A stretch of DNA of 28,809 nucleotides from a virus: IMG/VR virus record IMGVR_UViG_3300047276_000467, positions 1 to 28,809 of that record. One strand, 5' to 3'. Under the pieces are notes generated by a model, which searched no databases, was not told where the DNA came from, and saw nothing but the letters and a program-made list of their open reading frames with translations. The position numbers and the translations under genes were made by a program. Within the stretch, counting starts at the first letter, position 1, and each line of letters starts with the position of its first letter. Of the stretch, positions 1 through 28,809 are shown piece by piece.

Positions 1-194
1 ACAACCAACGCATCAACACCGCTCGCATCCTTTATGGAACCATCCAGCCCATCAGCATCGAGGAGGCCGTGGAGGCTCTGATGGACATCGAGATGCACCC
101 CGAACTCTACCTCACCAACGGCGAAGCTTGCCGTGGCTACGAGAAGCTCCGCTCGCTGGTCGAGGGCAACAACCTCAACACCTCTAACAACTAA
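1..194 (+). CDS. C-terminal end of an unknown phage protein (5' end outside window)
   Basis: An open frame runs from the window edge (first full codon at 3) to a TAA at 192-194, giving about 63 residues rich in Glu, Leu and Asn and ending in an Asn/Thr/Ser-rich tail. Codon use matches the downstream genes (mostly C- or G-ending codons), and the stop overlaps the next start (TAATG), which supports it as the upstream member of the same rightward operon. The visible part has no motif I recognise. Because the start lies outside the window, neither length nor function can be judged. Confidence 0.6.
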   Translation, partial: NQRINTARILYGTIQPISIEEAVEALMDIEMHPELYLTNGEACRGYEKLRSLVEGNNLNTSNN

Positions 195-661
195 TGCCCA
201 ACCTCGCCGTATTCCTCACCGCCGGTTACCTGGCAACCCTGCCGACCTGGATGGATCACACCAAGCACGCCGACCACCGGTTCCTCGCCGCCGTGGCGAT
301 GGTCGAGAGCGGCAACAACGCTCGCGCGATTGGCGACGGCGGCAACGCCCTGGGCAAGTTCCAGATGTGGCCGGCCGCCTGGAAGGACGCGCAGACCTGG
401 GCGAAGAAGCACGGACGGTTCGTCTGGACGCGCTCGGCCTGGCAGAACGAGCGAGCCCAGGAGGAGATGGCCTATTGCTACCTCAAGGTATGCCAGGAGC
501 GCCTGGTTGCCGCCGGCATCGACAACCCTTCGCCTACGCAGATCTACCTGTGCTACACGATGGGGTTCAAGGCGTTTAAAGATATTGACTTCGATGTCGC
601 GAAAGCTCCTCCTCGCAAGCTCAACGCCGCCGTGCGTGTCACCGCCATCTTCTCCAAATGA
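194..661 (+). CDS. Lysozyme-like / lytic transglycosylase-fold protein, candidate endolysin
   Basis: The 155-residue product has an SLT/goose-lysozyme-like core. AVAMVESGNN carries a Glu (E38) where the catalytic acid of soluble lytic transglycosylases sits, followed by a G-x-FQMW segment (54-59) like the family's G-hhQ motif. This implies cleavage of peptidoglycan glycan strands, either at lysis or in the virion. Residues 3-16 are hydrophobic and could be a weak export signal or just the first helix. The start overlaps the preceding stop (TAATG) and its own stop overlaps the next start (ATGA), so it is translated within the early/replication operon, far from the holin and spanin-like genes on the other strand. 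The fold call is by motif only, so a structural muralytic enzyme is an alternative to an endolysin. Confidence 0.6.
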   Translation: MPNLAVFLTAGYLATLPTWMDHTKHADHRFLAAVAMVESGNNARAIGDGGNALGKFQMWPAAWKDAQTWAKKHGRFVWTRSAWQNERAQEEMAYCYLKVCQERLVAAGIDNPSPTQIYLCYTMGFKAFKDIDFDVAKAPPRKLNAAVRVTAIFSK

Positions 662-1101
662 TCACCTATCTCGCAATCGACCCAGGCGCTTCCGGCGGCC
701 TGGCTATGTACAAGAAGGACGGCTCTGTCGAAGCGCACGCGCTCCCGGAGCTGTCCTATGATGCCATCTCCGATTTGGTGATGGATGAGTATACCGTGGT
801 AATCGAGGATGTACCGAAGTTCGCTGGCCGGATGATCCCGCAGTCATCCACGGCCACCCTGCACTTCAACTACGGTTACCTATGCGGACACTTTGAGACT
901 CGCGGCTACCGTGTCATCAAGGTTCCCCCGCAGACCTGGCAGAAGACCATCGGCATCGGCAAGAAGGGCGACCTTTCCTCTGCCCAATGGAAGCGTAAAC
1001 TCCGCGATGAAGCTCGCCGGCGCTTCCCAGGCCTCAAGGTAACCTTGGACAACTGCGATGCGCTCCTCATCCTGGAGCACGCGCGCCAGAACAATCTCTA
1101 A
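658..1101 (+). CDS. RuvC-like Holliday junction resolvase
   Basis: This 147-residue RNase H-fold nuclease would cut four-way or branched DNA during recombination or before packaging. The acidic residues of the RuvC family are visible: D8 in AIDPGASGG at the end of strand 1, E50 in VVIEDVP, and the C-terminal pair D131/D134 in TLDNCDALLI. Length and motif spacing fit phage RuvC-like resolvases. The start shares ATGA with the upstream stop, indicating coupling. It sits directly before the RecT-like and RecE-like genes, consistent with a shared recombination module. The family call is firm from motifs; substrate preference is inference. Confidence 0.85.
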   Translation: MITYLAIDPGASGGLAMYKKDGSVEAHALPELSYDAISDLVMDEYTVVIEDVPKFAGRMIPQSSTATLHFNYGYLCGHFETRGYRVIKVPPQTWQKTIGIGKKGDLSSAQWKRKLRDEARRRFPGLKVTLDNCDALLILEHARQNNL

Positions 1102-1110
1102 CCAACAACA

Positions 1111-1317
1111 ATGATCAAGAAACTCAAACGCTCGCCCCAGCACCGCATTGTCGGCCACCTGGACGATAACAACAAATATGTCGTGACCAGCGATGGTCGC
1201 GTCTTCCGTGAGCTCAAGGCTACGCGGGTCAACGATCGCGACTATTACAATGTCGTCATCGAAGGCGTACTGCGCCGCATCGCTCGCTCCAAGCTCAAAG
1301 AAGAAGCCAATGGATAA
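1111..1317 (+). CDS. Small basic protein, NUMOD4-like at most
   Basis: This 68-residue basic protein has a central segment (VVTSDGRVFREL and a following YYNVVIEG) that resembles the short beta-hairpin repeats (NUMOD4-type) found beside HNH homing endonucleases. No HNH motif is present, so it may be a stand-alone DNA-binding fragment or an unrelated small protein. The leader (accaacaaca before the ATG) has no Shine-Dalgarno. Its stop overlaps the RecT-like start by 8 nt, suggesting coupled expression with the recombination genes. Function is not recognised. Confidence 0.6.
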   Translation: MIKKLKRSPQHRIVGHLDDNNKYVVTSDGRVFRELKATRVNDRDYYNVVIEGVLRRIARSKLKEEANG

Positions 1318-2050
1318 CGACATCGTCCCCATCCAGCCGGCCGAACTCCAGGTCACCGGCGGTATGTACGACCGCATCAGCGACCCGATGCTGGCCATCA
1401 AGACCCTGGGTATGTCTATCTTCAAGTCCGGCATCTTTGGCCTGGATAAGCCCGAACAGGGCGAGATCCTGGCGATGCAATGCCTGGTCGAGAAGAAGTC
1501 TCCCCTTGAGCTCGCACGCACCTACCACTTCATCCAGGGTCAGCTGGCTATCCGCTCGGACGCGCTCCTGGCCAAGTACCAGCTCGCTGGCGGCAAGGTC
1601 GAGTGGATCGAGCGCACCGATGACGAAGTGCGCGCCCGGTTCTACCGAGCCGACCAGTCCGCGGTGATCACGGCATCGATGAAGGAGTATGTCGGCAACG
1701 GAACGGCCACGAAGGCTGACGGCAAGACCCTCAAGGATAATTGGAAGCGCTGGCCTCGCCGGATGCTGACCGCTCGCGCGATCTCGGAAGGCGTGCGCCT
1801 CATCGCGCCGGAGTGCTGTTTCGGAACCTATACTGTCGAGGAATTGGAACAGCCAAAGGTAGTTGATAAAAAGAGCTACTCCACCCTTGACGAGATCATC
1901 CCGGAAGGCAAAGTGCCTCAAGCCATCCAACTCCTCCAGAAGACTCATCATCTTCTCGTAGGCGAAGACCTCTCTCATCTTTCACCCGCAACTGTCGAAA
2001 GCATCCTCAAGAAGCCCCAGGCCTTCATTGACGCTATCAATTCCCTATGA
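1310..2050 (+). CDS. recT: RecT-family single-strand annealing protein
   Basis: The 246-residue product is a RecT-like recombinase that would coat single-stranded DNA left by the partner exonuclease and anneal it to complementary DNA. The strongest evidence is the family signature at residues 145-163 (WKRWPRRMLTARAISEGVR), a Trp/Pro/Arg-rich helix typical of RecT proteins, preceded by an LELARTYHFIQGQLAI segment at about 66-81 and followed by a GTYTVEEL turn. The frame is open further upstream, but the ATG at 1310 gives the family-like N terminus and overlaps the previous gene by only 8 nt. Its stop shares ATGA with the exonuclease start at 2047, the usual arrangement for a RecE/RecT pair. 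Confidence 0.8.
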   Translation: MDNDIVPIQPAELQVTGGMYDRISDPMLAIKTLGMSIFKSGIFGLDKPEQGEILAMQCLVEKKSPLELARTYHFIQGQLAIRSDALLAKYQLAGGKVEWIERTDDEVRARFYRADQSAVITASMKEYVGNGTATKADGKTLKDNWKRWPRRMLTARAISEGVRLIAPECCFGTYTVEELEQPKVVDKKSYSTLDEIIPEGKVPQAIQLLQKTHHLLVGEDLSHLSPATVESILKKPQAFIDAINSL

Positions 2051-2841
2051 GCCATAATCCCGAATACGACAACATCATCGCGCTGAACTACAGCGGCGCG
2101 AAACAGATCCTCCGCTCGCCGGCGCACTACAAGGCCTGGCTTGATGCCCAGGCCGAAGAAGAACAGAAGGACTCGCCGGCGCTCAAGCTCGGCCGCCTGG
2201 TTCACCTGGCGTGCCTCCAGCCGAAGGAGTTCCTCGACCGCGTGAAGATCGAGCCCGAAGTGGACAAGCGCACCAAGACCGGCAAGGAGGTCTACGAGCT
2301 GTTCAAGGCCTCCCTGGCCGAAGGCGATGAGACCGTTGACAACGAGACCTACGCGCAGATCGATGCGATCGCCGAGTCGGTCGAGAAGGCGCTGACCTCC
2401 CTCAAGCTGGACACCAGCGTCTGGATCACCGAGAAGCCATACACCAAGGAGCACGAAGGCGTGACCATCAAGGGTCGCCCCGACCTGGTCACCAAGCTGA
2501 AGGGATGCGAGGCGCTCCAGATCTTCGACATCAAGACCTGCCAGTCGGCCGAGCCGGCGGCGTTCGCTCGCGATGTGGCCAACTTCAAGTACCACCTCCA
2601 GGCCGCGTTCTACGCGGAGCTGGTCGGCACGGAGAACTTCTTCCTCATCGCCGTGGAAAAGGAACCGCCCTACGCCTACCGTATCTACACGCTCGATGCC
2701 GCCGGCCTGTCCGAAGGCAAGGCGCTGATGCGCGATGCCGTGGCCGCCTACAAGCAGTCGATCACCTTCCAGACCTGGCCGTCCTATACGCCCAATGTTT
2801 GCGAGTTGCCTCTGCCGAAGTGGGCTCACATTCTCACCTAA
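2047..2841 (+). CDS. RecE-like PD-(D/E)XK exonuclease (DUF3799 type)
   Basis: The 264-residue product is an exonuclease of the exonuclease VIII/RecE C-terminal family that would resect double-stranded ends to make single strands for the RecT-like partner. Visible family elements are GRLVHLA (49-55), KGRPDLV with D146, the core D161-x-K163 in IFDIKT, and YHLQAAFY (182-189) with the conserved Gln. Together these form the usual G-H / D / D-x-K / Q series. The length fits the stand-alone nuclease domain without the long N-terminal part of E. coli RecE. It overlaps the RecT-like gene by 4 nt (ATGA). A 32-nt A/C-rich spacer with no Shine-Dalgarno follows. Confidence 0.85.
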   Translation: MSHNPEYDNIIALNYSGAKQILRSPAHYKAWLDAQAEEEQKDSPALKLGRLVHLACLQPKEFLDRVKIEPEVDKRTKTGKEVYELFKASLAEGDETVDNETYAQIDAIAESVEKALTSLKLDTSVWITEKPYTKEHEGVTIKGRPDLVTKLKGCEALQIFDIKTCQSAEPAAFARDVANFKYHLQAAFYAELVGTENFFLIAVEKEPPYAYRIYTLDAAGLSEGKALMRDAVAAYKQSITFQTWPSYTPNVCELPLPKWAHILT

Positions 2842-2873
2842 CCCAATAATACCAAACCCAAACTAATACGCAT

Positions 2874-3236
2874 ATGTCGTTTAAGTTCGATCCCAACGCC
2901 GCCTCCGAGCGCAAGTACATCACCAAGCCCGGCACTTACGATGTCGTGGTCAAGAGCTGGACGGAAGCCTGGCTCGCCCCGCGCGCCGACTTCTACATCC
3001 GGTTCTTCGTGGCCGCCAGCGCCACCAAGGAGGAGATCAACCGTCTCATCCAGCGCGGCGACTTCGATGTGACCGATGACTTCCTTCGCGAGATCGCCAC
3101 GCGCTCGACCGGCCGCGCGATCCGCGTGGTCGTCACGGAGAAGAAGTTCTTGAAGCGCGATGGAACCGAAGGCGTTGCCTACCAGGGCTCGTTCTTCCGT
3201 CGCCTTCCCAACGGCCCGGACTCCATTCCGTTCTAA
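2874..3236 (+). CDS. Small protein with SSB-like C-terminal tip, candidate ssDNA-binding protein
   Basis: The 120-residue product opens with MSFKFDPNAA and a GTYDVVVK segment. This resembles the beta-rich start of DUF669-type phage proteins that accompany recombination genes. It ends in PDSIPF. The final Ile-Pro-Phe after an acidic residue matches the tip of bacterial SSB (DDDIPF), which recruits exonucleases, helicases and RecO-type partners. Its place between the RecE/RecT pair and an SF2 helicase supports a role in handling ssDNA. The leader before the ATG at 2874 is A/C/T-rich and lacks a Shine-Dalgarno. The stop overlaps the helicase start (TAATG). OB-fold membership is inference. Confidence 0.6.
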   Translation: MSFKFDPNAASERKYITKPGTYDVVVKSWTEAWLAPRADFYIRFFVAASATKEEINRLIQRGDFDVTDDFLREIATRSTGRAIRVVVTEKKFLKRDGTEGVAYQGSFFRRLPNGPDSIPF

Positions 3237-4687
3237 TGGAAGCTCCCTCCCTTCGTGAGTACCAGAAACAGGCGATCCACGCCTGTCTGGACGCGCTTGC
3301 GAAGGGAGTGAACCCGCTTCTCATCGCGCCTACCGGAGCCGGCAAGACGGTGATGGCCGGCGCGATGATGAAGGCCTGGCAGGAGGCCACCGGCCTCCCT
3401 TGCTATTTTTTCGCGCACCGATCCGAACTCATCGAACAGGCAGAGGCCACGATGGCGAAGTTTGAGATCATCGGGAAGGCGTTCAGCGTCTTCCAGAAGT
3501 CATACGATGCCGACCGTATGGACTGTGCCTTGTGCGTCTTTGACGAAGCTCACCACGCCGTGGCTTCATCCTGGACGAATGTCGGCAAATTTTTCCTCGG
3601 CCCGAAGGTGGCCATCACCGCCACGCCCGACCGCCTGGACAACCAGCGCCTGGAAGAAGCCGGCTTCGTGCGCGTGTTCGACATCAAGATCTCCGAGCTC
3701 ATCAACCAGGGCTTCCTGGTTCGCCCGATGGCGCAGAAGCTATCGGTTTCGATCTGCGACAACATCATCGAGAATTACACCGATGCGATCGAGCAGGTGG
3801 CAAAGAATGTCGTGGACGAGTTCTACCGCTACAAGCGCAACCGGGCGATGGTCTTCCTGCCAAGCGTGGAGGCCTCCCGCAAGTTCAGCGCCGCCCTTCG
3901 CGGCCTGGGTATGGAGTCGTCCCACCTGGATGGAACCTCCGGCAAGCTACGCACCCTGGCCGTCAATGACTTCAAGGCCGGCCGCACGGAGTTCCTTTGC
4001 AATGTCTCGTTGTTCACCGAGGGCTTCGACTGCCCGGAGGTTGACTGCGTGATCCTCTTGCGCGAGACCAAGTCCCGCGCGCTCTGGTCGCAGATGATTG
4101 GCCGAGGCCTACGATCTTCGCCTGGCAAGAAGGACTGCCTCATCCTCGACCCGATGTGGGTCAGCGGTACGCATACCCTTACCCCGGCCGATGCCTTTAC
4201 CTCGCACCCGGATGCCGTGTGCAAACCTTCCCTTGGTCTTTCAGATCCCCTGGGGGAGGCTCAACTTGAAGACCAGGATGCCGAGCATCGACTTCTCAAC
4301 AAGCTCAAGCGCCTGGAGGCAGAAGAAGATGCCGAGGCGGCCAAGGAGCGCGGTCTTATCGACCTGTCTGTGGTAGTGCCTATGTTCGGCTTCGTGCCGC
4401 CTCCTATGGAGCAGGGCGAGGGCGTTGTGTCCCAGGAGCAACGCTATCAGCTTGAGCGCTTCCAGGTCTTCGCGCCGGCCGACCTGGGAGCCAAACAGGC
4501 CGCTTACATCCTACGCAAGATGTACGAGCGCCAGAAGCTCGGCCTGGCTACGGCTCGCCAGGTTCGCAAGCTCCGTCAGTTCGGCCACCGGTTCGCCAAC
4601 AACTATACCTTTGAACAGGCCGGCAAGGCCATCTCTTCCGACTGGCGTATCGCCGGCCGCACGCGCCCACGCAGGATCTTCCGATGA
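3236..4687 (+). CDS. SF2 DEAH-box DNA helicase (Rad25/UvrB-like)
   Basis: The 483-residue ATP-dependent helicase or translocase shows SF2 motifs in order: Q-like REYQKQA (7-13), Walker A PTGAGKT (32-38), AHRSELIEQ (Ia, 60-68), DEAH (103-106), TATPDR (129-133), the motif V region TEGFDCPEVD (261-270) and motif VI QMIGRGLR (286-293). The stretch between motifs Ia and II is shorter than in typical Rad25-like helicases. Residues about 320-483 form a C-terminal extension ending in a LATARQVRKLRQFG segment. The neighbours suggest it unwinds replication or recombination intermediates. The start overlaps the preceding stop (TAATG), and its own stop overlaps the next start (ATGA). Confidence 0.9.
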   Translation: MEAPSLREYQKQAIHACLDALAKGVNPLLIAPTGAGKTVMAGAMMKAWQEATGLPCYFFAHRSELIEQAEATMAKFEIIGKAFSVFQKSYDADRMDCALCVFDEAHHAVASSWTNVGKFFLGPKVAITATPDRLDNQRLEEAGFVRVFDIKISELINQGFLVRPMAQKLSVSICDNIIENYTDAIEQVAKNVVDEFYRYKRNRAMVFLPSVEASRKFSAALRGLGMESSHLDGTSGKLRTLAVNDFKAGRTEFLCNVSLFTEGFDCPEVDCVILLRETKSRALWSQMIGRGLRSSPGKKDCLILDPMWVSGTHTLTPADAFTSHPDAVCKPSLGLSDPLGEAQLEDQDAEHRLLNKLKRLEAEEDAEAAKERGLIDLSVVVPMFGFVPPPMEQGEGVVSQEQRYQLERFQVFAPADLGAKQAAYILRKMYERQKLGLATARQVRKLRQFGHRFANNYTFEQAGKAISSDWRIAGRTRPRRIFR

Positions 4688-6090: not shown

Positions 6091-6160
6091 GCTAAATTAC
6101 CAGAAAGAATATCAGCGCAGTTATCGCAAGGTACTGCGACAGAGGGCTAATATGAAATGA
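5912..6160 (+). CDS. Small basic hypothetical protein
   Basis: The 82-residue product starts by TAATG overlap with the upstream stop and ends by ATGA overlap with the phosphoesterase gene, so both ends fit the operon's coupling pattern. The first 25 residues are Ser/Pro/Gln-rich. The remainder is helical and strongly basic with several Tyr (KLNYQKEYQRSYRKVLRQR), suggesting nucleic-acid contact. The competing frame at 5806-6090 covers most of it. Function is not recognised. Confidence 0.55.
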   Translation: MSQPSSPQSQPRESAVSRKTNGLPALGRAIMAAKRGNHSFVMMSLDAAMEVHAVTKRIHKLNYQKEYQRSYRKVLRQRANMK

Positions 6161-6882
6161 AACGAATATCCCAAGGGTCTGGCTGGAAACGCTTTATGGC
6201 CTTGGGATGCTCGCACGGCAACTTTGCCGACCCGGAAGCGATTGCGGCGGTGTTGAAGTTCAAGAAGGACTTTAAGCCGCACCGGGTAATCCACCTGGGG
6301 GACTTCATCGACCTGTCTGCCTTTATGGGCGGCACGGATGGTGAGGGCGAGAAGGTTCGCCCCGATCTGGATGCCGGCCTGGAGTTCCTTCGCCAGTTGG
6401 AGCCGACCGATGTCCTGGCCGGCAACCACGAAGACCGCCTGTGGCGCGACCTCAAGTCCAGGAACGAGCTCCGCGTCCTGGCGGCCGAGACGGCCATCGA
6501 GGAGATTGAAGCTACCGTGCTCAAGCTCCACGCCCAGTTCTACCCTTATTCCGGGGTTTGGCAGAAGATGCAGATCGCCAACTTTATGTTCACCCACGGA
6601 ACAGTCTATGGGGAGAACGCTCCGCGCGATATGGCAGAGATGTACGGCAATGTGATCTTCGCCCATACCCATAAGACCGGCCAGATGACCGGCCGGCGCA
6701 TCGACTGCCCCCAGGGGATCTCTGTCGGTACGCTCACGCGCAAGGGCGCGATGGAGTACGCCAAGAACCGGCGCGCCACGCTGTCCTGGTCGCAGGGCAT
6801 CGTCTACGGCGAGTACAATGATACGCACCTTCACCCGATCCTTCATTCCCAGAACCCCGATAGCAAATGGCGCATAAGCTGA
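6157..6882 (+). CDS. Calcineurin-like metallophosphoesterase, motif I Asp missing
   Basis: The 241-residue product has the metallophosphoesterase signature: LGDFID (47-52, motif II), GNHE (89-92, motif III), THGT (146-149) and AHTH (169-172, final metal-binding His motif). The family hydrolyses phosphomono- or diesters, often nucleotides or RNA ends, using two metal ions. Motif I is normally D-x-H; here it is C18-S-H20, so the bridging-metal Asp is absent, which could change metal use or activity. The start shares ATGA with the previous gene. It overlaps the following small gene by 16 nt. The substrate is unknown; nucleotide metabolism or RNA repair is inferred from context only. Confidence 0.8.
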   Translation: MKRISQGSGWKRFMALGCSHGNFADPEAIAAVLKFKKDFKPHRVIHLGDFIDLSAFMGGTDGEGEKVRPDLDAGLEFLRQLEPTDVLAGNHEDRLWRDLKSRNELRVLAAETAIEEIEATVLKLHAQFYPYSGVWQKMQIANFMFTHGTVYGENAPRDMAEMYGNVIFAHTHKTGQMTGRRIDCPQGISVGTLTRKGAMEYAKNRRATLSWSQGIVYGEYNDTHLHPILHSQNPDSKWRIS

Positions 6883-7124: not shown

Positions 7125-7135
7125 CGAAGGTTTAG

Positions 7136-7396: not shown

Positions 7397-9379
7397 ATGA
7401 CCGCCCAAGACCGCATCAAGGGTGCGAGGAACTATCTCGCAAAGCTTCCCCCGGCTATCGCCGGCCAGGGAGGCCACCCTGCCACCTATCGCGCCGCATC
7501 TATCCTCGCCCACGGCTTTGAGCTGGGTTGGGACGATGCCTGGGCGCTTCTCCAGGAATGGAACAAGACCCATTGCTCTCCGGCCTGGAGCGATAAGGAT
7601 CTTCGCCACAAGCTGAACGATGCCTTCGTCAAGCCGCACGAACGCCCGAAGGGCTGGCTCGGCGGCCGCGAGCGCACGGTCGGTTCCAATGGCCGGCTGA
7701 TGTTCGACCCGAAGCGCGTGGCCGAGATTGCTTTTGGCTCCGTGCCTCTGACCACGGCAGACCTCCTCCTGGCGGCCTTCAAGGACGATGATGTCATCAG
7801 CATCACGCACGAAGCCGGCCAGACCGAGGATGGCCGCTTCTTCCCGGCATCCAAGGGCAACTTCCTCACCCGCGCCGAATGGATTAAGCGGTTCTTCGGC
7901 CCGGATGGTAAGAGCATCTTCACCGGCCTGGAAGCCGGCGCGTGGATCCGCATCAACCCCTTCAAGCCGGACGACTTCAGCGGCACGGACGGATCGGTCG
8001 GAAGCTATCGAAATGTCCTGGTCGAGTTTGATAAGAAGGACAAAGAGGAGCAGATTGCCATCTTCCATCAGTCCAACCTCCCAATCACCGCGCTCATCGA
8101 CTCCGGAGGCAAGAGCATCCACGCCTGGGTGCGGGTGGATGCGGAGAGCAAGGAGCAATGGGAGGAACGCCGGAACACCGTCTACGAGTTCCTGGCTGAC
8201 CACGAACCCGATCCGCAGAACAAGAACCCTTCCCGCTGGTCTCGCCTGGGCGGCGTGATGCGTGGCGACAAGGAGCAGAAGATCCTGGCGCTCAAGGTCG
8301 GCGCGGAGGACTGGGATAGCTGGGTTGTCTGGCGAGATGGCCAGGATCTCCCGGAGGAGCTCAACACGGACTTCCTGGAAACTTACGATACCCAGCACGA
8401 CCCTAACCATATGATCGGCCACGGCCGCTGGCTTTGCCGTGGGGGCTCGCTTCTAATCACCGGCCAGTCCGGCATCGGCAAGAGCTCGTTCACGATGCAG
8501 ACCGCTTGCTCCTGGGCGCTCGGTCGTGAGCTGTTCGGCATCCCGGTCAAGAAGCCGCTCCGCATCGGCGTAGTCCAGGCCGAGTGCGATGTCGGCGACC
8601 TGGCAGAGGCCTACCAGGGGGTCACCTCTGCGATGGGCTTGTCAGCCGCCGACCGCCAGGTGCTCAAGGAGAACCTCCGGTTCTACACCGAGACCACCAA
8701 GACCGGCAAAGACTTCGCCGACCTGGTACGCAAGATCGTGGTACGGATGAAGCTCGATGTGATCTTCTGCGACCCCCTGCTCTCGTATGTGGGGGGGGAT
8801 CTGTCGAAGCAGGAGGTGGCCTCCCACTTCCTCCGCAATCTTATCCAGCCCATCCTTAAGGACACCGGGTGTATCATCGTCTTCACCCACCACGAAGGTA
8901 AGCCGAAGCCGAAGGAGGTCACCGAAGGCCAGACCATCAGCGATATGGCGTATAGCGGCCTGGGGAGCTCCGAGCTCGTCAACTGGGCGCGCGCCATCAT
9001 CAATGTTCGGCGCGAGTCGAAGGACTACCCAATCTTCAGCTTCAACCTTACCAAGCGCGGCAAGTTGGCCGGGATGCGTACCCAGGACGGAAAGCCGACC
9101 CTGTCTCTCAAGCTCCGGCACGCCGAGGGCAAGGTGCTCTGGGAGGTCGCACCCCTGTCATCCAAGTTTGAGCTCCTCAAGGTCGGCGAGCAGTACGCCC
9201 ACTTCGCCACCAAGCCGTCCACCGGCCGTGGGGCTATCCTCAAGGAGTTGGAACAGGACTACGGCCTCAATAAAGACCAGGCCGAGTCCGTGCTGAAGGC
9301 TATGGTCACTAATGGCATCCTTTCCCCTAAAAAGATCGGAGCGGCCTTGTTCTACGAAGGAACGGCCTACGGAGAATGA
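7397..9379 (+). CDS. Primase-helicase fusion (AEP-like primase plus RepA/RecA-fold helicase)
   Basis: The 660-residue product appears to combine three parts. Residues 1-90 form a helical domain resembling those next to phage primases. Residues about 100-310 look like an archaeo-eukaryotic-type primase: a VLVEFD acidic pair (E210/D212), then SGGKSIHAW (236-244) carrying the S-x-H-like motif, then SRWSRLGGVMR (279-289) as a basic third motif. Residues about 335-560 are a RecA-fold ATPase with Walker A GQSGIGKSS (356-364), Walker B near VIFCDPL (455-461) and THHEGK, as in RepA/AAA_25 helicases. It would prime and unwind at the replication fork. The last 100 residues may be a winged helix. The ATPase is secure; the primase call rests on motifs. 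Confidence 0.8.
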   Translation: MTAQDRIKGARNYLAKLPPAIAGQGGHPATYRAASILAHGFELGWDDAWALLQEWNKTHCSPAWSDKDLRHKLNDAFVKPHERPKGWLGGRERTVGSNGRLMFDPKRVAEIAFGSVPLTTADLLLAAFKDDDVISITHEAGQTEDGRFFPASKGNFLTRAEWIKRFFGPDGKSIFTGLEAGAWIRINPFKPDDFSGTDGSVGSYRNVLVEFDKKDKEEQIAIFHQSNLPITALIDSGGKSIHAWVRVDAESKEQWEERRNTVYEFLADHEPDPQNKNPSRWSRLGGVMRGDKEQKILALKVGAEDWDSWVVWRDGQDLPEELNTDFLETYDTQHDPNHMIGHGRWLCRGGSLLITGQSGIGKSSFTMQTACSWALGRELFGIPVKKPLRIGVVQAECDVGDLAEAYQGVTSAMGLSAADRQVLKENLRFYTETTKTGKDFADLVRKIVVRMKLDVIFCDPLLSYVGGDLSKQEVASHFLRNLIQPILKDTGCIIVFTHHEGKPKPKEVTEGQTISDMAYSGLGSSELVNWARAIINVRRESKDYPIFSFNLTKRGKLAGMRTQDGKPTLSLKLRHAEGKVLWEVAPLSSKFELLKVGEQYAHFATKPSTGRGAILKELEQDYGLNKDQAESVLKAMVTNGILSPKKIGAALFYEGTAYGE

Positions 9380-9434
9380 CAAAAACCGACCGCCAAGGCG
9401 CTTTGGTTGACTGGTTGGTATCCTGCTATACCCC

Positions 9435-9446: not shown

Positions 9447-9450
9447 CGCC

Positions 9451-10445: not shown

Positions 10446-10449
10446 AGGA

Positions 10450-13072: not shown

Positions 13073-13102
13073 AGTCCTTTAAATAGCCCTCTGTCAAACA
13101 GG

Positions 13103-20986: not shown

Positions 20987-21883
20987 TTACGAGAAGGTGA
21001 TCTTCTGGAGCGCGTCCGGGTTGCCCTTGCCAGAGCCGATCAGCCAGTTGGCCGAGAGCTTGTGCAGACCGGCAGACCAGTCGTACCAGTAGCGGAGAGC
21101 GTAGGAGAACTGGCTGTCCGGGTCGGTCACGATCGTCTGTTCGCCACCACCGGTGGTCGGAGCGGCAGGGACGCGGGTCACGACAACGAGGCCTTCCTTG
21201 CAGGAGACGACACCGTTGAGGCCGGTTTCAAGGCCAGCGGCATCGAAGCCATTGTACTCGTAGAAGTCGATACCGTGGATCATACCGAGGCGGTTGCCAC
21301 GGATGACATCAGAAGTACCGATGGAGAACGCCTGGGCGATCACCGGGTCGGAAATCAGCTGCTGGTAGGCATCGGGAGAGACGAGGGCGGCACGGCCTTC
21401 CTGGGGAAGGTTAGCGAGCGTAAGGCTCTTGGCGATGTTGGAGACGGCGATACGGTTGAAACCGCTCTGCGCGCCGTCATAGCCGGCCTCGAAAGAGTTG
21501 TCCACCTTGCCGAGAACCTGGTCGAACAGGGACTTGACGACAGCGTTAGCCATCGGAGCCATAAAGAGGCGGCGAAGGCGTTCCAGGGAGAGCGTGGCGA
21601 CTTCGTAGTCGGTGAACGCAACCGTGACGTGTTTTTGGTCAACCAGGGTCACAGGGACATCGGTCGAGACAGCGTCAGAGGCGACGAAGCCGGTGGCGCG
21701 ATCGTAGTTAGCCGCCGTGAACTTACCGGCGTAGCGGGTGTGAACCGTAGTACCGCGCTCGGCGACATAAGCGCCGAAGTCGGTGACAGCGATCTTGGTG
21801 AGGGGCTGAAGCTGGGGAACAAGCGTCCGCAGGGACTCTTCGGCCACAAGCTGGAGGGTCAAGCCCCCGATAGCGTTAGACAT
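20987..21883 (-). CDS. Major capsid protein (HK97 fold, P22-coat-like)
   Basis: The 298-residue product forms the head shell. The segment about 45-120 (RYAGKFTAANYD, then STDVPVTLVDQKHVTVAFTDYE, then a long helix SLERLRRLFMAPMANAVV) matches the pattern of P22-coat-like HK97-fold proteins: an E-loop-like region, a conserved [ST]TDVPV strand and a spine-helix-like segment. The C-terminal strand-rich end (YALRYWYDWSAGLHKLSANWLIGSGKG) resembles the A-domain/P-domain end of such proteins. The gene follows the protease and scaffold and is followed by a strong terminator, as expected for the most expressed gene. It holds the only ACGT in the window, coding for its K-H-V. The leader lacks a Shine-Dalgarno (aatacactact). 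Confidence 0.8.
   Translation of the reverse strand: MSNAIGGLTLQLVAEESLRTLVPQLQPLTKIAVTDFGAYVAERGTTVHTRYAGKFTAANYDRATGFVASDAVSTDVPVTLVDQKHVTVAFTDYEVATLSLERLRRLFMAPMANAVVKSLFDQVLGKVDNSFEAGYDGAQSGFNRIAVSNIAKSLTLANLPQEGRAALVSPDAYQQLISDPVIAQAFSIGTSDVIRGNRLGMIHGIDFYEYNGFDAAGLETGLNGVVSCKEGLVVVTRVPAAPTTGGGEQTIVTDPDSQFSYALRYWYDWSAGLHKLSANWLIGSGKGNPDALQKITFS
21627..21630. other. The only ACGT found in the window
   Basis: This palindrome encodes His-Val (CAC-GTC) in the major capsid protein. His-Val cannot be written without either ACGT or CATG, the two avoided tetramers, so the site is forced by the protein sequence. Confidence 0.75.
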
Positions 21884-22372: not shown

Positions 22373-22404
22373 AGGGATTTGTTAGAGATAGCGATGAGTC
22401 AAAG

Positions 22405-23217
22405 TTAGACCGCCTCGACAGCTTCGTCCATCGAGCCGTAAAGGCCGGTGACGAGGCCGCGCGCGGCGGCCTTTTTGCCGGAGAAGACCTGGCCTTCCAT
22501 ATCGGCATCCTGGGCGAACATACGGACGCGCTTTACGGCCGCCTTGAACTCGGCGTGGGTCTCATTGACATCGTCCTGGAGTAGCTGGCGCTGTTTATCG
22601 GACAGAGTCGTACCCTCAATACCCATCGCCTTGTATTCGCCGGACTTGATGACTTCCATCTTGATGCCTTCGGCGGCGTAGGCTTCGGAGAAATCGGCGA
22701 AAGCGATATACACGCCGATCGCACCGACATCGGCGCTGGGGGACGCGCAGAAGCGCTTGGCCTGGGATCCGATGAAGTAAGCGGCAGAACAGGCCTCGCT
22801 GTCCGTGTAGGACATAGTCGGCTTGGTCATCTTGAAGATTTGATTGGCCAGCTCCGGCACGCCGGCGGTAGTGCCGCCAGGAGAGTTAATGTCGAAGATG
22901 ACATTCTCGACAGCCGGATTTGCTTCGGCCTGGGCGACATACTCGGAAATATCGTCCACATCGACCGCTCCGCAGAGTTTCTCAAGGTCGGAAAGACCTT
23001 TTCCGATGACACCCTGGATAGGGATGATGGCGGTATTGCCGTGGATCTCCATCTCGCGCGGCTTACCGAACATCAGTTCAAGCATCTGGCGAACATCGGA
23101 GGCCTTGGAGTCCAGGTTGAAGGTGACATCCTTGGTACTCTCGATGTAGGCCTTGGCCTTGGTGGGCTCAAGCATCAGAGTTCGGCCGGTCTTTAGGGCT
23201 TTGATGAGATGGTTCAT
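22405..23217 (-). CDS. S49 (SppA/lambda C-like) head maturation protease
   Basis: The 270-residue product is a serine protease that would process scaffold and perhaps portal in the procapsid. S49 features: strand IPIQGVIGKG (66-74), NVIFDINSPGG (105-115), nucleophile S144 in EACSAAY, DVGAIGVY (163-170) and catalytic Lys K196 in SGEYKAMG. The oxyanion segment SPGG is intact. Unlike the lambda C gene, there is no long C-terminal scaffold extension; the scaffold is a separate gene, 32 nt downstream. The leader is A/T-rich (about 12 consecutive T/A pairs) without a Shine-Dalgarno, unlike the neighbouring overlaps. Confidence 0.9.
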   Translation of the reverse strand: MNHLIKALKTGRTLMLEPTKAKAYIESTKDVTFNLDSKASDVRQMLELMFGKPREMEIHGNTAIIPIQGVIGKGLSDLEKLCGAVDVDDISEYVAQAEANPAVENVIFDINSPGGTTAGVPELANQIFKMTKPTMSYTDSEACSAAYFIGSQAKRFCASPSADVGAIGVYIAFADFSEAYAAEGIKMEVIKSGEYKAMGIEGTTLSDKQRQLLQDDVNETHAEFKAAVKRVRMFAQDADMEGQVFSGKKAAARGLVTGLYGSMDEAVEAV

Positions 23218-23244: not shown

Positions 23245-24867
23245 TCACTCCCCCATAGGGTCTTCAAAGGTGTCGTCCTCGCTGTCGAGTTCTTCGACCT
23301 CCTTCTTGGCCTTATTGGCTTCGCGCTTCTCGTTTTCCTCGTCTTCGTCCATACCGGCATCGTCTTCGTTCTCTCCGGGTTCTTCCCCGGTGATATCGGC
23401 CAGACCGACATTGGTAGGCTTGATCAGCATCCAGAGAGGCACATCGAACTCCTTGGCGGTATCGACATACATCTTGGCTTCGATGGCGCGGCGGCGCAGG
23501 AGCTCGGAGAAGTGTTCGCCTTCTTCCTGGCAGTTCTCGCCGATGGTCTTGAGACCCATCTCGATGTCGGCACGGTTCTGGGCGGCATCTCGGCCGGCAT
23601 CGACCGTGACGCGCTTGGGGGTAGTCCAGATGACCTTTTCCCATCCTTCGACGCTGGGCAGTTCGCCGCGAGCGATGGCATCGCCGATCACATAACCCCA
23701 GACAGGGGTGAGGAAGCGGTTGATGAGGACAGACTGGATGTACTGGAACTTGCGGTCTGCCTTGGCAACGATGAGGCGCATAGCCGCACCGGAAGCCGCA
23801 CCTGGATCGCAGATGAACTCATACGGAAGAACGCCCATCACGGAGTCACGCTGAAGGTGCTCCATAAAGCCGTTGAAGGTCGGGTTCGGGCGGTTGGACT
23901 GGAAAGACTCAAGCTTTTCACCAGGGGAGAGAGCCAGGATCTTGCCGCCGATGAAGGTAGAAGCTTCATCCGGGTCGGTAAGGCCATTGCCGCTGACATC
24001 CTGTGGGCGCATACCAAAAGCCTCAAAGTCGGACTGAGCTCCGTCAAATTGGGCGGTTTCGCGCGAAATGGTGCGGGTGATATCGCCATTCATCTTCACC
24101 GCAAACTTTTCAAGCGAGATGATTTCCAGCATATCCACGATATTATTGATCGAGTGCTGAAGGGGGCTGTAGGCGCGAGCACCGGAAGCGACTTCCGGCT
24201 CGTAGATGTGCATAATCGCCGGGGCGGGAACTCGCCGGCTGGAGCCGTCAGAGCGGATGATATTGTACCAATCCGGCTTACCGTAAGGGCCAAAATGGAT
24301 GCCATCCACCTCGTTGGGCGGCGGGGCTCCGCTCTGATTGCTGGAGACTCGGTGAGCCTCAATCATCTGGAGTTTCGGCTCGTTGGAGCCATCGCGCGTC
24401 TTGATCACGAAAATCTCGCCGTCACGATACATCAGACGAGGAATGATCTTCTGGATCTCGTAGAAATTGAAACGACCGGTGATGTCGCAGGGGTTGCGCG
24501 CCCAGGCATCGAAGTACTCTTCGTACTTGTGATCCATAGCCGAGTTGCCGGTGCGAGCCTGGGCTCGGATACCGTTACCGACCGTGTAGAGCGTGACATC
24601 TGACAGGATCTGACGGATGATGCCGGCGTTCAGCTCCATCCAGCGCATCTTGCGCGTGGTCTCAAGACGGTCGAAGACCGTCATCGTCTTCTTGAAGTCA
24701 GTCGGCCAGGACGACCAGATCCAGGAACGCTTATTTGAGAACTTTGCGCTCTCGAAATTAGAGAAGATACCGGGGCCGCCGGTAGCCTGTTTCTTCAGCT
24801 TCGGATCAGCTCCAGCGCCCTTTTTAGTGGGCTTTGCGGAAGCTTTCTTGAGTTTTTTGCGCGCCAT
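23245..24867 (-). CDS. Portal protein (lambda B family)
   Basis: The 540-residue product forms the dodecameric DNA channel at the head vertex. It shows lambda-portal features: FDRLETTRKMRWMELNAG (65-82), SDVTLYTVGNG, a DGEIFVIKTRDG strand, an IMHIYEPEVASGARAYSPLQ segment in the middle and PYEFICDPGAASGAAMRLI. The N terminus (1-30) is Lys-rich. The last about 46 residues are very acidic (EDDAGMDEDEENE and EELDSEDD), plausibly a flexible tail in the head interior. It lies between gpW-like and protease genes, exactly as lambda W-B-C. The 6-nt spacer to gpW suggests coupling. Confidence 0.9.
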   Translation of the reverse strand: MARKKLKKASAKPTKKGAGADPKLKKQATGGPGIFSNFESAKFSNKRSWIWSSWPTDFKKTMTVFDRLETTRKMRWMELNAGIIRQILSDVTLYTVGNGIRAQARTGNSAMDHKYEEYFDAWARNPCDITGRFNFYEIQKIIPRLMYRDGEIFVIKTRDGSNEPKLQMIEAHRVSSNQSGAPPPNEVDGIHFGPYGKPDWYNIIRSDGSSRRVPAPAIMHIYEPEVASGARAYSPLQHSINNIVDMLEIISLEKFAVKMNGDITRTISRETAQFDGAQSDFEAFGMRPQDVSGNGLTDPDEASTFIGGKILALSPGEKLESFQSNRPNPTFNGFMEHLQRDSVMGVLPYEFICDPGAASGAAMRLIVAKADRKFQYIQSVLINRFLTPVWGYVIGDAIARGELPSVEGWEKVIWTTPKRVTVDAGRDAAQNRADIEMGLKTIGENCQEEGEHFSELLRRRAIEAKMYVDTAKEFDVPLWMLIKPTNVGLADITGEEPGENEDDAGMDEDEENEKREANKAKKEVEELDSEDDTFEDPMGE

Positions 24868-24873
24868 AATGCT

Positions 24874-25254: not shown

Positions 25255-25258
25255 TTAA

Positions 25259-27112
25259 TCACAGGGTTGGCTTGTCTTCCGGTTTGTCAACAGGCTTTTC
25301 TTCGGCGTTCTTGTTCTTACCACGGCCAACCAGCTTGGCCATCAGCGCGGGGAGCATCCCGATGACCTCGCAGTCCCACAGGTGGTTGGCGCGCTCGCCA
25401 ATCTGAAGCCAGATCGGCTTGCCGGCCTCCGTGCGGGTACGGTGCTCGGATTGCATCTGCTTGCGGTACTCTTCGCCGGCATCCTGGGGGTAGGTGTGTA
25501 GGCCAGCCCTGCGTAGGCGGGTGATGGAGTCCTTGAGCACCAGGTTGGAGAACATAAACATACGGCAAGACTGCTTTCCGACCTGGACAATCTTGGCCGG
25601 CGAGTAAGGCCGGTAGGCAATCTTTACTCCGTAGGGGGTGGATACCTTCCAGGGGAACTCGTTGTTACCGGAGCCCTTGGTGGCGTTCCAGCCGTAGCTC
25701 GCGCAATTCCGGTAGACTTCGTCCATATTCGGGCCGTCACCGGAGTCCACGAACACGAAGGTGTCCGGCACACCCCATCGGCGTTGCTCGTTCCGGACAT
25801 CCTCCCAGGACTCCATATACCCCCACCATACCAGGCGGGAGCGACCTTCGGCGCTCCAGGAGCGGACGACACCGTAGAAGCCCTTGCGTTGCACATCGAC
25901 CGCCAGGAAGCGGAGCCGGTTGAACATCGGCTTGGAGCGATCTTCCTCGGTGAACGGAGGTGGGCATAGCTTGCCGTTGAAATTGGCGGCCTCATCAGCC
26001 CAGTCCTCGCCCATAAGGTATCCGCTGGGCAGGACTTCGCCTCCGTTGTCATCCGGATCGTCAGACCAGGGCAAGGCCAGTCGCTTCTGTTTGAAGTCCT
26101 TGCGTTTGCTTTCTTCGCCGTGCTCATCGAAAGATTGGGATGCCTCGATACATTCAACGGCCAGGTCTCCCCAGGACAGACCCCACAGCATAGCCAGGGA
26201 ATTAAAATGAAATCCTCGCCGGCCTTTCGGCGCGTTCAGATTGATAGGCAAATACTCGGCCTCCTTGCACATCTCGGCTCGGACGCTGTTTCGGTCAAGG
26301 TAGGTGTGCTTGCAATGCTTGCACTCGTAGGTCGTGCCGGAGCGAACCTTGTCCAGATCCCATCCGTTGGCCGTCTTTGCGTCTGCCGGGTACTTGATCT
26401 GCACCCACTCGAAAGCCTGGCGCGTACCGCAGGACACGCACTTGAACGACCATTCAGACCGGTCTGTGGAATTAAATAAATCGGTGAACTCATCACCCTC
26501 CACGCCCCCCTGTGAGACGAAGACCGATTTGCCCTGCCAGGTGAAGGCGGTTCGGCGAGCCAGGGCTTGCTTGAGGTGACCTTTAGGCCATTGCCAACAT
26601 TCGTCACCGCCGAGGAAGCGGATGGATCGGCGCTGGAGGTTGCGCTCGTTGTTCGCGCCAAGCACCCAGGTGACATTCCGTTCAAACTGGGTGGTGTGCC
26701 ACTTGCTACGCTCGGCCTGGGAAAGCCGGTCGCGCGTGGGCGGCGTGTTATCCCACAAAGGCCGGAGGCGGGTCTGTTGCCAGTCCTGGGCGTTCAAGTC
26801 CACATCCTGGAGCAGGAGCATCGGGCCGGGTGTGCGGGAAGGCACGAAGGCAGACCACAGCTCAAGAACCATCGACTTGCCACTCTGGACATTGCCCATC
26901 ACCACGATGGTCTCGACCTCCGGATCCTGGAGCGCGCGGAGGATGGGCGCGAGATATGGTGTTGACTCTATGCGGAACGGCCCTGGTTGTGGGGAGTAAG
27001 GCACATTCTTGATATTCTTCTCAAGCCAGTCGATGATGTCACCGTCCGGGTCTGGCGCGAGCAGACTCCGGAGCGCGGCTTCAAACAGGATCTCCGTCTT
27101 GCTGGATTTCAT
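25259..27112 (-). CDS. terL: Terminase large subunit (GpA family)
   Basis: The 617-residue product packages DNA with an N-terminal ATPase and a C-terminal nuclease. Visible: Walker A GNVQSGKS (73-80), an acidic pair D170/E171 in FLGGDECW, a zinc-ribbon-like pair C225-x2-C228 and C264-x2-C267, and nuclease acids D406 (FLAVDVQ) and D456 (FVFVDSGDG). These match phage lambda GpA/PF05876 terminases, which usually cut at cos sites, so this phage may have cohesive ends. It overlaps the TerS gene by 32 nt. The stop lies beside a large inverted repeat. No cos site was identified in the window. Confidence 0.9.
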   Translation of the reverse strand: MKSSKTEILFEAALRSLLAPDPDGDIIDWLEKNIKNVPYSPQPGPFRIESTPYLAPILRALQDPEVETIVVMGNVQSGKSMVLELWSAFVPSRTPGPMLLLQDVDLNAQDWQQTRLRPLWDNTPPTRDRLSQAERSKWHTTQFERNVTWVLGANNERNLQRRSIRFLGGDECWQWPKGHLKQALARRTAFTWQGKSVFVSQGGVEGDEFTDLFNSTDRSEWSFKCVSCGTRQAFEWVQIKYPADAKTANGWDLDKVRSGTTYECKHCKHTYLDRNSVRAEMCKEAEYLPINLNAPKGRRGFHFNSLAMLWGLSWGDLAVECIEASQSFDEHGEESKRKDFKQKRLALPWSDDPDDNGGEVLPSGYLMGEDWADEAANFNGKLCPPPFTEEDRSKPMFNRLRFLAVDVQRKGFYGVVRSWSAEGRSRLVWWGYMESWEDVRNEQRRWGVPDTFVFVDSGDGPNMDEVYRNCASYGWNATKGSGNNEFPWKVSTPYGVKIAYRPYSPAKIVQVGKQSCRMFMFSNLVLKDSITRLRRAGLHTYPQDAGEEYRKQMQSEHRTRTEAGKPIWLQIGERANHLWDCEVIGMLPALMAKLVGRGKNKNAEEKPVDKPEDKPTL

Positions 27113-27737
27113 CGGCTTGCGGGTTTACTGTCTCCTCCTTGATCACCTCGATAGAAACAATCTCCTGGACTGCTTCCTGTGCTTCTTCGGCCTGGTTGGA
27201 CAGTCGCTGAAGGATGCGGGTCACCTCTGACTCGATTGCCTTCATCGCCGTGCCAGGAGAGTCTGGGTTTGCTTTGACGGCCAGCTTGGTCGGTAGCTGG
27301 GAAAGCTCGTTGCGGATCGAAAGCAGAACCTTGCCGAAGCGGTCGATGGCGGTCTGGGTCTTGATGTACTCCTTGGCGGCGATGCCGCGCGCGTGGAGTT
27401 CCTTCTCCAGGGTGACCAGGGTCTTGACCAGCTTGTCGTAGGTGGCGTAGCTCTTGGACTGGTTAGGAGATTGCTCGTCCAGGTCTCGCATATACTGGCG
27501 ATAGGCCAGCGCCTTGAGCTCCCGGTGCTGTTCTACCAGCTGGGCGAAGTCCTTGTCCTCTTCGTTGGTTTCGGAATTAAAAGAAACGGAGTTGTCGTTG
27601 CGCCGGTGGGCGCGTGAGTTGTACCAGGCTTCGGCCGACTCGATGGAGTCGGTCGGCATACCCTGGTTGATGAAGCCGTTGATGGCTTGCCTTGAGATGC
27701 CCAGGCGCTCGGCGATGTCAACCGGTCGGACGCTCAT
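27081..27737 (-). CDS. terS: Terminase small subunit (Nu1-like)
   Basis: The 218-residue product has an N-terminal winged-helix-like HTH (residues 5-28, VDIAERLGISRQAINGFINQGMP), as in lambda Nu1, that would bind the packaging site. A helical, charged middle (about 60-200) probably makes the oligomer, and an acidic tail (PQADEIQQDGDPV) contacts the large subunit. It directly precedes and overlaps TerL by 32 nt. The ATG shares ATGA with the previous gene's stop. It is slightly longer than Nu1 (181 residues). Confidence 0.8.
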   Translation of the reverse strand: MSVRPVDIAERLGISRQAINGFINQGMPTDSIESAEAWYNSRAHRRNDNSVSFNSETNEEDKDFAQLVEQHRELKALAYRQYMRDLDEQSPNQSKSYATYDKLVKTLVTLEKELHARGIAAKEYIKTQTAIDRFGKVLLSIRNELSQLPTKLAVKANPDSPGTAMKAIESEVTRILQRLSNQAEEAQEAVQEIVSIEVIKEETVNPQADEIQQDGDPV

Positions 27738-28219
27738 TTCTTCTTACGCGCATTTGAGTACGCTTTGCAGAGTTTCTCGGATCGCATATAGATGCTGGGT
27801 TCCAGGCCTACGCGCTTCTGGATATACTTCACGCGCCAGGAGATCATCGCCTTGGAGGTGTCGTGGCGTTTCGCGAGATCGCCCATCGACTTGTAGCCAG
27901 GTACGCCCAAGGCCATCTTCATACAATCCGCGTGGAGCTTCACTTCGGGCGACCGGGAGCAGTCGAAGGCATCTATCACCCTGGCGACCACGCTGACCAG
28001 CAGGTCTTTCATCGGGCCGGCATTTTCCGGTACGCCCGGCTTCACGCCGTGCTTCTCGATCCACCACTCGTTCGTGATGTAGCGGTTCGGGCCTTGAGGT
28101 GGATCCGGATTGGTGGGGTTGTCCAGGTTGACTCCGGACTCCTTGAGCTTGATCCTGTCTTCCGGGGAAAGACCGGCTAAAAAAGAAACCCACACTTCAT
28201 CGAGGGGGCGGGGCTTCAT
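27734..28219 (-). CDS. DNA-binding protein with C-terminal HTH
   Basis: The 161-residue product has a helix-turn-helix near its C terminus (111-135, SMGDLAKRHDTSKAMISWRV) preceded by a helical linker (VVARVIDAFDCSRSPEVKLHADCMKMAL) and a Pro-rich N terminus (NPTNPDPPQGPN). The end is Lys/Arg-rich. It is coupled by ATGA to both neighbours and lies before TerS, so it may control late genes or packaging. A sigma-region-4-like reading is possible from the HTH alone but cannot be proven. Confidence 0.6.
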   Translation of the reverse strand: MKPRPLDEVWVSFLAGLSPEDRIKLKESGVNLDNPTNPDPPQGPNRYITNEWWIEKHGVKPGVPENAGPMKDLLVSVVARVIDAFDCSRSPEVKLHADCMKMALGVPGYKSMGDLAKRHDTSKAMISWRVKYIQKRVGLEPSIYMRSEKLCKAYSNARKKK

Positions 28220-28422
28220 CGGTCGCGCAGGTCTTTCAGCTGTACGATGGTGGCGGCAATGACACGCGCGTCTTCGATCATTCCATCCAGCAGGTCACGG
28301 CTATGCTCGTCTTTGTGGACTGCGTGATAGGCCAGGCCGGAGTGGATGAGCTTGCCCACGATGACGGAAAGCTTCTCGATGCTCGCATCGAATTGTTCCT
28401 TTTCTGTCTCGGTCAAAGCCAC
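28216..28422 (-). CDS. Small hypothetical protein, GTG start
   Basis: The 68-residue product is helical and charged, with His-rich centre (HSGLAYHAVHKDEHSRD). The start codon is GTG at 28420-28422 (minus strand), because the expected ATG is absent at that place. Its stop shares ATGA with the next gene. No motif is recognised; it is part of the leftward operon before the DNA-binding and terminase genes. Confidence 0.5.
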   Translation of the reverse strand: MALTETEKEQFDASIEKLSVIVGKLIHSGLAYHAVHKDEHSRDLLDGMIEDARVIAATIVQLKDLRDR

Positions 28423-28458
28423 TATGCCAAAGTTCTTATCCCTGGCAAGTGACCATTG

Positions 28459-28809
28459 TCAAGGGGCAATCTCTGTCCGGTAGTCGATGAGGTAGTTGCC
28501 GTCCGGCTGACGGACGAACAGGCCGGCCTTGATACAGCTCCGGGTGAGCGACCAGGCCTTGGTCGTGTTGAGATCCTCGCCGTACACCTCATTCCAGTTC
28601 TCGGCCACCTGGTCGCGGAGCACCGAGGCGCTCATCGGCCTGGCCGGCAGGAGGTGGACGATGGCGCGGACGGAGTTCACACGCTCGGCGGCCTTCTCGA
28701 TCTTGGCGCGGTTGAGCGCGTCCAGGTGGTTGACCATCGTGTCTCGCTTCTCGCGCCAGATCTTGCGCCAATAGCTGGCGAAGTGGGGGCGGCGGTTCTG
28801 GGGCTGTTT
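28459..28809 (-). CDS. DNA-binding-like protein, 5' end outside window
   Basis: The reading frame stays open to the window edge, beyond the ATG at 28737. The upstream codons (HFASYWRKIWREKRD) look coding and continue the same helical, basic character, so the gene is taken as partial at its start. The C-terminal part (SASVLRDQVAENWNEVYG, then a turn and LFVRQPDGNYLIDYRTE) has a winged-helix-like shape. It may be a regulator or a replication/packaging accessory. Total visible length is 116 residues. Function is not recognised. Confidence 0.55.
   Translation of the reverse strand, partial: KQPQNRRPHFASYWRKIWREKRDTMVNHLDALNRAKIEKAAERVNSVRAIVHLLPARPMSASVLRDQVAENWNEVYGEDLNTTKAWSLTRSCIKAGLFVRQPDGNYLIDYRTEIAP

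What the first reader, a model, noticed from the sequence alone, without database searches (positions are those of the whole stretch)
1..28809. Two palindromic tetramers, CATG and ACGT, are almost absent
Reading all lines, I found no CATG and one ACGT, where about 110 of each would be expected in 28.8 kb by chance; other palindromic tetramers are common except CTAG (seen at 11016, 11194, 12217, 13377). Codon choice confirms it: Asp-Val, Asn-Val and Tyr-Val use GAT/AAT/TAT before GTN; Met follows T-, A- or G-ending codons (GGT-ATG, CAT-ATG); no start codon is preceded by C. Known cause for such avoidance is restriction: CATG and ACGT are sites of known 4-base systems (NlaIII-type, MaeII/HpyCH4IV-type). 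The inference is a host (or host range) with two such specificities. The counts are by eye.
Basis: partly seen in the sequence, partly recalled or inferred. Interest (0 to 1): 0.85.

Follow-up and report, generated by a model that had tools for sequence, protein, structure and literature searches.

The report
Phage genome stripped of restriction sites
This bacterial virus has removed from its DNA not two but about eighteen different short sequences that bacterial DNA-cutting enzymes look for, and its close relatives have each removed a different set, so each genome is a record of the enzymes its lineage has had to survive.

Summary
It is also a small part of the pattern. About 18 motifs are erased at once: 14 symmetric ones, each of which I recognise as a known Type II restriction specificity (CATG, ACGT, CTAG, CGWCG, CTNAG, GCWGC, GGWCC, GAWTC, CASTG, GGYRCC, CYCGRG, GKGCMC, RAATTY, GRCGYC), plus 4 asymmetric ones (CCTGA, ACGGG, GCRGGC, GGCGGA). 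Together 18 sites remain of about 956 expected. The window is a tailed-phage contig (IMG/VR) with 46 relatives found through the terminase. Relatives erase 6-28 motifs each, in different combinations. The state is nearly binary (O/E <0.1 or >0.3) and flips between contigs 91-95% identical in DNA, mostly by single, mostly synonymous substitutions. No methyltransferase was found in the window; six relatives carry a C5 one. Distant outgroups and unrelated phages erase far less, or less completely. Best explanation: selection by many Type II restriction systems in the host population, probably Verrucomicrobiota (phylum-level inference only). Restriction avoidance is known; the number, completeness and turnover of motifs are unusual.

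The parts
1..28809 (.). Whole contig: about 18 motifs erased; 18 residual sites against 956 (range 886-1024) in 200 codon-shuffled versions
21627..21630 (.). only ACGT, inside the major capsid gene
11016..13380 (.). all four residual CTAG sites (11016, 11193, 12217, 13377), within the tail-protein region
   Evidence: post hoc P about 6e-4 for all four falling in 10583-13533
194..1101 (+). transglycosylase-like protein (194-661) and Holliday junction resolvase (658-1101)
   Evidence: PHROG hits
1193..2841 (+). weak RecT-like match (1193-2050) and PD-(D/E)XK nuclease DUF3799 (2047-2841): recombination pair
   Evidence: Pfam
3236..4687 (+). DEAD/ResIII-fold helicase (generic helicase, not evidence of a restriction system)
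   Evidence: Pfam
6157..6882 (+). calcineurin-like phosphoesterase
   Evidence: Pfam
7397..9379 (+). primase/helicase; 68-96% identical in relatives
   Evidence: PHROG, relatives
10583..13072 (-). tail protein (829 aa)
   Evidence: PHROG
16795..18201 (-). tail tape-measure protein
   Evidence: PHROG
20987..21883 (-). major head protein; closest named phage P8625 (29%)
22405..23217 (-). S49 head-maturation peptidase
   Evidence: Pfam
23245..24867 (-). portal protein
   Evidence: PHROG
25259..27112 (-). terminase large subunit, used to find relatives
27081..27737 (-). terminase small subunit
   Evidence: PHROG

Best explanation
The genome belongs to a tailed phage, probably of Verrucomicrobiota, whose lineage has been exposed to many Type II restriction systems. 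Each unmethylated recognition site is a chance of being cut on entry, so variants without the site are favoured. Once exposure to a specificity is sustained, essentially all its sites are removed by single, mostly synonymous substitutions. The window has done this for about 18 motifs and, unlike some relatives, shows no methyltransferase of its own. The erased set differs between close relatives because the restriction systems met differ from lineage to lineage. Shown here: the absences, their statistical strength, their binary state, their turnover between relatives, and the way sites were lost. Inferred: that restriction enzymes are the selecting agent, that the host population carries the cognate enzymes, and the host phylum.
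For: 18 sites observed against 956 expected, while the same caller finds nothing in four codon-shuffled copies of the window. All 14 symmetric motifs match Type II specificities known to me, including degenerate ones (GGWCC, GCWGC, GAWTC, CASTG, GGYRCC, CYCGRG) while sister words stay common (GCSGC 147, GASTC 55). Across 39 clade contigs the O/E is bimodal: CATG 20 below 0.1, 0 at 0.1-0.3, 19 above; GCWGC 20/0/18; CASTG 23/0/4; GAWTC 8/0/29; controls TCGA and TGCA never erased. Between 91%-identical contigs L021 and L024, CCTGA goes 20 to 0, AGCT 17 to 0, GCWGC 7 to 0, GGCGGA 6 to 0, while non-erased motifs change in both directions. 39 of 50 such losses are one substitution, 30 of 50 purely synonymous; for CATG/GATC between L020 and L019, 33 of 37 and 28 of 37. 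No methyltransferase hit in the window. Outgroups L043, L048 and P8625 have 0, 1 and 2 erased motifs.
Against: No host genome was linked and no cognate enzyme demonstrated. The four asymmetric motifs match no specificity I can name, and a large survey saw avoidance only for orthodox Type II sites (PMC6286503). For AGCT, 11 of 12 single-step losses are C-to-T on one strand or the other, so deamination of host-methylated cytosine may contribute there.
Confidence: 0.87

Rival explanations
1. Mutational or repair bias (very-short-patch repair, deamination of host-methylated cytosines, dinucleotide bias) depletes these words without selection.
For: Site-destroying single substitutions are transition-rich (53:19 over two pairs, against 664:602 overall), and for AGCT nearly all are C-to-T on one strand or the other.
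Against: Counts are zero rather than low; codon shuffles and Markov models do not predict it; CCTGA losses are half transversions at several positions; the affected words differ between 91-95% identical genomes; intermediate O/E values are rare.
Confidence: 0.05
2. The phage avoids sites of its own sequence-specific nuclease or defence enzymes.
For: The window encodes a PD-(D/E)XK protein and a helicase.
Against: The nuclease is DUF3799 next to a RecT-like gene, a recombination-exonuclease context; about 18 unrelated specificities cannot come from one enzyme; the erased sets change while terminase and primase stay mostly 64-96% identical.
Confidence: 0.02
3. CRISPR PAM avoidance.
For: PAM depletion in phages is published (PMC4246573, PMC12174588, listed; abstracts only).
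Against: Most erased motifs are 4-6 bp palindromes; no 5- or 6-mer is depleted on one strand only in eight genomes.
Confidence: 0.01
4. Assembly or library artefact (restriction-digested DNA, contig chimera).
For: The record is a metagenomic contig.
Against: A digest breaks contigs at sites; it does not remove about 940 sites from a continuous, 94% coding sequence with intact genes. Relatives from other IMG/VR records show the same kind of pattern with other motifs.
Confidence: 0.01

Closest known systems
Restriction-site avoidance in phage genomes (Rusinov et al. 2018, PMC6286503, who cite Sharp 1986 and Rocha 2001)
   Same: Elimination (O/E < 0.1, expected > 15) of Type II recognition sites in a dsDNA phage
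   Different: About 18 motifs in one 28.8 kb genome, four of them asymmetric; the survey.1% of host-matched Type II site-genome pairs eliminated and under 0.5% for other types; erased sets turn over between close relatives
Anabaena phage A-4L, Faecalibacterium phage FP_Epona (31.7 kb part), T7 (run here as comparators)
   Same: Several erased motifs: 14, 15 and 14 with the same caller
   Different: Fewer completely erased (E>=20, O/E<=0.05): 7, 6 and 3 against 15 here; missing sites per kb 14.1, 17.9 and 12.5 against 32.0
Verrucomicrobia phage P8625 (Puniceicoccales sp. IMCC8625)
   Same: Same head-gene order (TerL, portal, protease, coat) and the same kinds of replication genes; TerL 25%, head protein 29% identical
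   Different: Annotated with its own DNA methyltransferase; only GTAC and GGNCC erased
GANTC depletion in a pelagiphage subgroup (PMC9516812)
   Same: Motif depletion in a subgroup of related aquatic phages, discussed together with host methylation
   Different: One motif rather than many

Membership tests
Phage restriction-site avoidance (Type II) | Sites eliminated: O/E < 0.1 with expectation > 15 | tested here: met
   17 of 18 motifs (codon-shuffle null rather than the survey's CB); CTAG is 4/26.7-32.7, at about 0.12-0.15
Phage restriction-site avoidance (Type II) | dsDNA tailed phage | tested here: met
   terminase, portal, head, tape-measure hits
Phage restriction-site avoidance (Type II) | Host species encodes a restriction enzyme of that specificity | not testable with these tools
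   Host not identified. Only circumstantial: a Lake Biwa Verrucomicrobia MAG has an MTase closest to M.SinI (GGWCC) (PMC6329791), and GGWCC is erased in 24 of 36 contigs
Phage restriction-site avoidance (Type II) | Mainly non-temperate phages | tested here: inconclusive
   No integrase or repressor among the proteins scanned, but the contig's completeness is unknown
Phage restriction-site avoidance (Type II) | No other anti-restriction route such as own methylation | tested here: met
   No PF00145 or PF01555 match in the window; PF02086 not searched genome-wide; base modification not excluded
Avoidance of Type III sites | Strand-biased absence of asymmetric sites is one escape route | tested here: not met
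   Asymmetric motifs are absent on both strands; no strand-only depletion in eight genomes
P8625-like phages | Homologous head module and gene order | tested here: met
   distant, 25-29% identity

The most novel reading that the evidence does not exclude
Natural phages of one clade carry a combinatorial, nearly binary erasure code of roughly 6-28 motifs that is rewritten within a few percent of sequence divergence, and it includes asymmetric motifs of restriction systems not previously seen to drive site loss (Type IIG-like or undescribed specificities). The restriction repertoire of an uncultured host population could then be read from phage sequence alone.
Probability: 0.4. Interest if true: 0.78.

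Novelty: new member of a known kind. Interest (0 to 1): 0.62.

Why it matters
It is a very strong and clean case of multi-specificity restriction avoidance, and the relatives turn it into a comparative system: the same genes, at 91-95% DNA identity, with whole sets of sites present or gone. That allows the tempo and route of site erasure, the choice between erasing sites and carrying a methyltransferase, and the restriction repertoire of uncultured hosts to be measured. The erased sets are specific, checkable predictions of the methylated motifs expected in the host.

Tried and rejected
Near-identity search of named phages: no match. CRISPR-spacer route to the host (window DNA against 388 Verrucomicrobiota genomes): real hits are portal- and terminase-homologous stretches at 64-70%; eight of the short hits were checked and lack CRISPR repeats. 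A control scan for terminase relatives in another phylum could not be run because the E. coli genome is not held as a centre. TRD-to-motif decoding of the relatives' methyltransferases was not attempted. No repressor or integrase found. ATTCKA (1/17) was dropped from the motif list as borderline; CCGCGG (1/15), GTCGAC (0/11) and CACGAG (0/10) look depleted but have too low an expectation to claim. A wider census of named phages was not possible; nine unrelated phages or phage segments plus P8625 served as comparators.

Full report
Observation. Exact counting gives CATG 0, ACGT 1 (21627) and CTAG 4 in 28,809 bp at 57% GC; first-order Markov expectation is 115, 77 and 79. The sequence is 94% coding, so I used a stricter null: 200 shuffles of synonymous codons that keep every protein and the codon usage. 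They give means of 95.7, 75.0 and 26.7, with minima of 77, 58 and 16.

The pattern is much larger. A scan of 5- and 6-base words showed more zeros, and a stepwise motif search against the codon-shuffle null (O/E at most 0.15, P below 1e-6) returned 19 motifs for the window, of which I keep 17 as called: CATG 0/90, ACGT 1/72, CTAG 4/33, CGWCG 8/103, CTNAG 2/74, GCWGC 1/66, GGWCC 0/60, GAWTC 0/50, CASTG 0/33, GGYRCC 0/52, CYCGRG 0/31, GKGCMC 0/23, RAATTY 1/18, CCTGA 0/61, ACGGG 0/45, GCCYGC (= GCRGGC) 0/51 and GGCGGA 0/29. The eighteenth is GRCGYC 1/60, which contains the called GACGCC 1/33; ATTCKA (1/17) is dropped. Together 18 sites remain where shuffles carry 956 (886-1024). Four shuffled versions of the window gave no motif at all, so the caller does not invent them. 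From my own knowledge the 14 symmetric motifs are the specificities of NlaIII, MaeII/HpyCH4IV, BfaI, Hpy99I, DdeI, TseI/ApeKI, AvaII/SinI, TfiI, TspRI, BanI/HgiCI, AvaI, BaeGI/BseSI, ApoI and BsaHI/HgiDI; the search was not told any of them. I cannot name enzymes for the four asymmetric motifs.

What the window is. An IMG/VR virus record. Early genes read rightward (transglycosylase, Holliday resolvase, weak RecT match, DUF3799 nuclease, helicase, phosphoesterase, primase) and structural genes leftward (terminase, portal, S49 protease, head, tape measure, tail). No methyltransferase was found (with Pfam on the larger proteins).

Relatives. The terminase finds 46 viral loci, mostly 62-96% identical. 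The same analysis on 16 larger relatives gives 6-28 erased motifs each, in different combinations: for example G005 lacks GATC 0/120, AGCT 0/118, CATG 0/100, GCGC 0/85 and CGCG 0/82; G008 lacks GTAC 0/83, CCGG 0/47, AGSCT 0/56 and ACSGT 0/37. Distant outgroups (L043, L048, P8625) have 0, 1 and 2. Nine unrelated phages or phage segments give 0-15 motifs; the number completely erased (E at least 20, O/E at most 0.05) is at most 7 there and 15 in the window, and missing sites per kb are at most 17.9 against 32.0. So multi-site avoidance is not unique to this clade, but its extent here is well above these comparators. They are a small, hand-picked set, not a census.

Binary state and turnover. Over 39 clade contigs the O/E of many motifs is bimodal with an almost empty 0.1-0.3 class (below 0.1 / 0.1-0.3 / above: CATG 20/0/19, ACGT 15/0/24, GCWGC 20/0/18, CASTG 23/0/4, GAWTC 8/0/29, RGCGCY 8/0/21, ACGGG 20/1/10), whereas TCGA, TGCA and GGCC are never erased; CTNAG and YCGCGR are less clean, and contigs are not independent samples. 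On the terminase tree single motifs need up to 8 changes of state (CCTGA), 6 (CTNAG) and 5 (CATG, GCWGC). Between L021 and L024 (91% identical over 9.7 kb) L024 has lost CCTGA 20 to 0, AGCT 17 to 0, GCWGC 7 to 0 and GGCGGA 6 to 0, while unselected motifs change both ways; between L019 and L020 (92%) CATG is 0 against 16 and GATC 0 against 21. Most losses are one substitution (39 of 50; 33 of 37) and purely synonymous (30 of 50; 28 of 37). The direction of change in the L019/L020 pair is not certain.

Mechanism. The simplest account is selection by Type II restriction, with enough different systems in the host population to act on many motifs. Alternatives were weighed: mutation bias (CCTGA losses are spread over positions and half are transversions, though AGCT losses are nearly all C-to-T on one strand or the other, so deamination may contribute there), own nuclease, PAM avoidance (no strand-only depletion) and artefact. 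Asymmetric motifs are absent on both strands, which fits enzymes that cut at single sites rather than Type III pairs.

Own methylation as the other route. Six relatives (G006, G007, G013, G014, G016 partial, G018) carry a C5 methyltransferase gene near the primase gene; the five complete ones have the PCQ and ENV motifs, and G013's is 662 aa with a long central region. The full-length contigs without one (window, G001, G005, G008) are missing 27-33 sites per kb, the ones with it 17-32: suggestive, not significant.

Host. The nearest named phage is P8625 of a Puniceicoccales bacterium, with the same head-gene order. The terminase profile, scanned against genomes of all phyla by conserved peptides, hit one contig, an Akkermansiaceae MAG, and found about 14 strong relatives among 388 Verrucomicrobiota genomes. 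I put Verrucomicrobiota at about 0.65; no other phylum could be scanned as a control. Some genomes of that phylum are rich in methyltransferases: G218 has 5 listed C5 and 11 N6/N4 family matches (matches can be pieces of one gene, and the C5 search scored at most five candidates per genome). A Lake Biwa Verrucomicrobia MAG has an MTase closest to M.SinI (GGWCC) (PMC6329791), and GGWCC is the motif erased in most contigs of this clade.

Position against the literature. Site avoidance is established; Rusinov et al. (PMC6286503) report elimination for 7.1% of host-matched Type II site-genome pairs and essentially none for Type I or IIG. The window is therefore a new, extreme member of a known kind. 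What is unusual is the number of simultaneous, near-complete erasures, the inclusion of asymmetric motifs, and the rapid, binary turnover among relatives. My literature searches covered only the open-access library and cannot exclude a prior report on this clade.

Noticed in passing
G006 9359-10516, G007 2019-3203, G013 1684-3672, G014 10584-12149, G016 22324-23079 (partial), G018 22126-23214: Relatives carry a C5 DNA methyltransferase near the primase gene, 362-662 aa in the complete cases, with a long variable middle in G013 and G014 (possibly multispecific); window, G001, G005 and G008 have none.
   Followed up: partly
window 10583-13533: All four remaining CTAG sites lie in the tail-protein region, which may be a more recently acquired or exchanged module.
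   Followed up: partly
window, whole: GGSCC is also low (25 against about 100 by Markov expectation) although GGWCC is the fully erased half of GGNCC, and GGCC itself is over-represented (268 against 182).
   Followed up: no
L019 vs L020: GATC and CATG are completely absent in one and at normal density in the other at 92% identity; L018, outside that pair in the tree, also lacks both, so parallel erasure or very fast regain is implied.
   Followed up: partly
Anabaena phage A-4L (L110): The asymmetric word AATC/GATT is entirely absent (0 against 229) along with GATC and GGCC.
   Followed up: no
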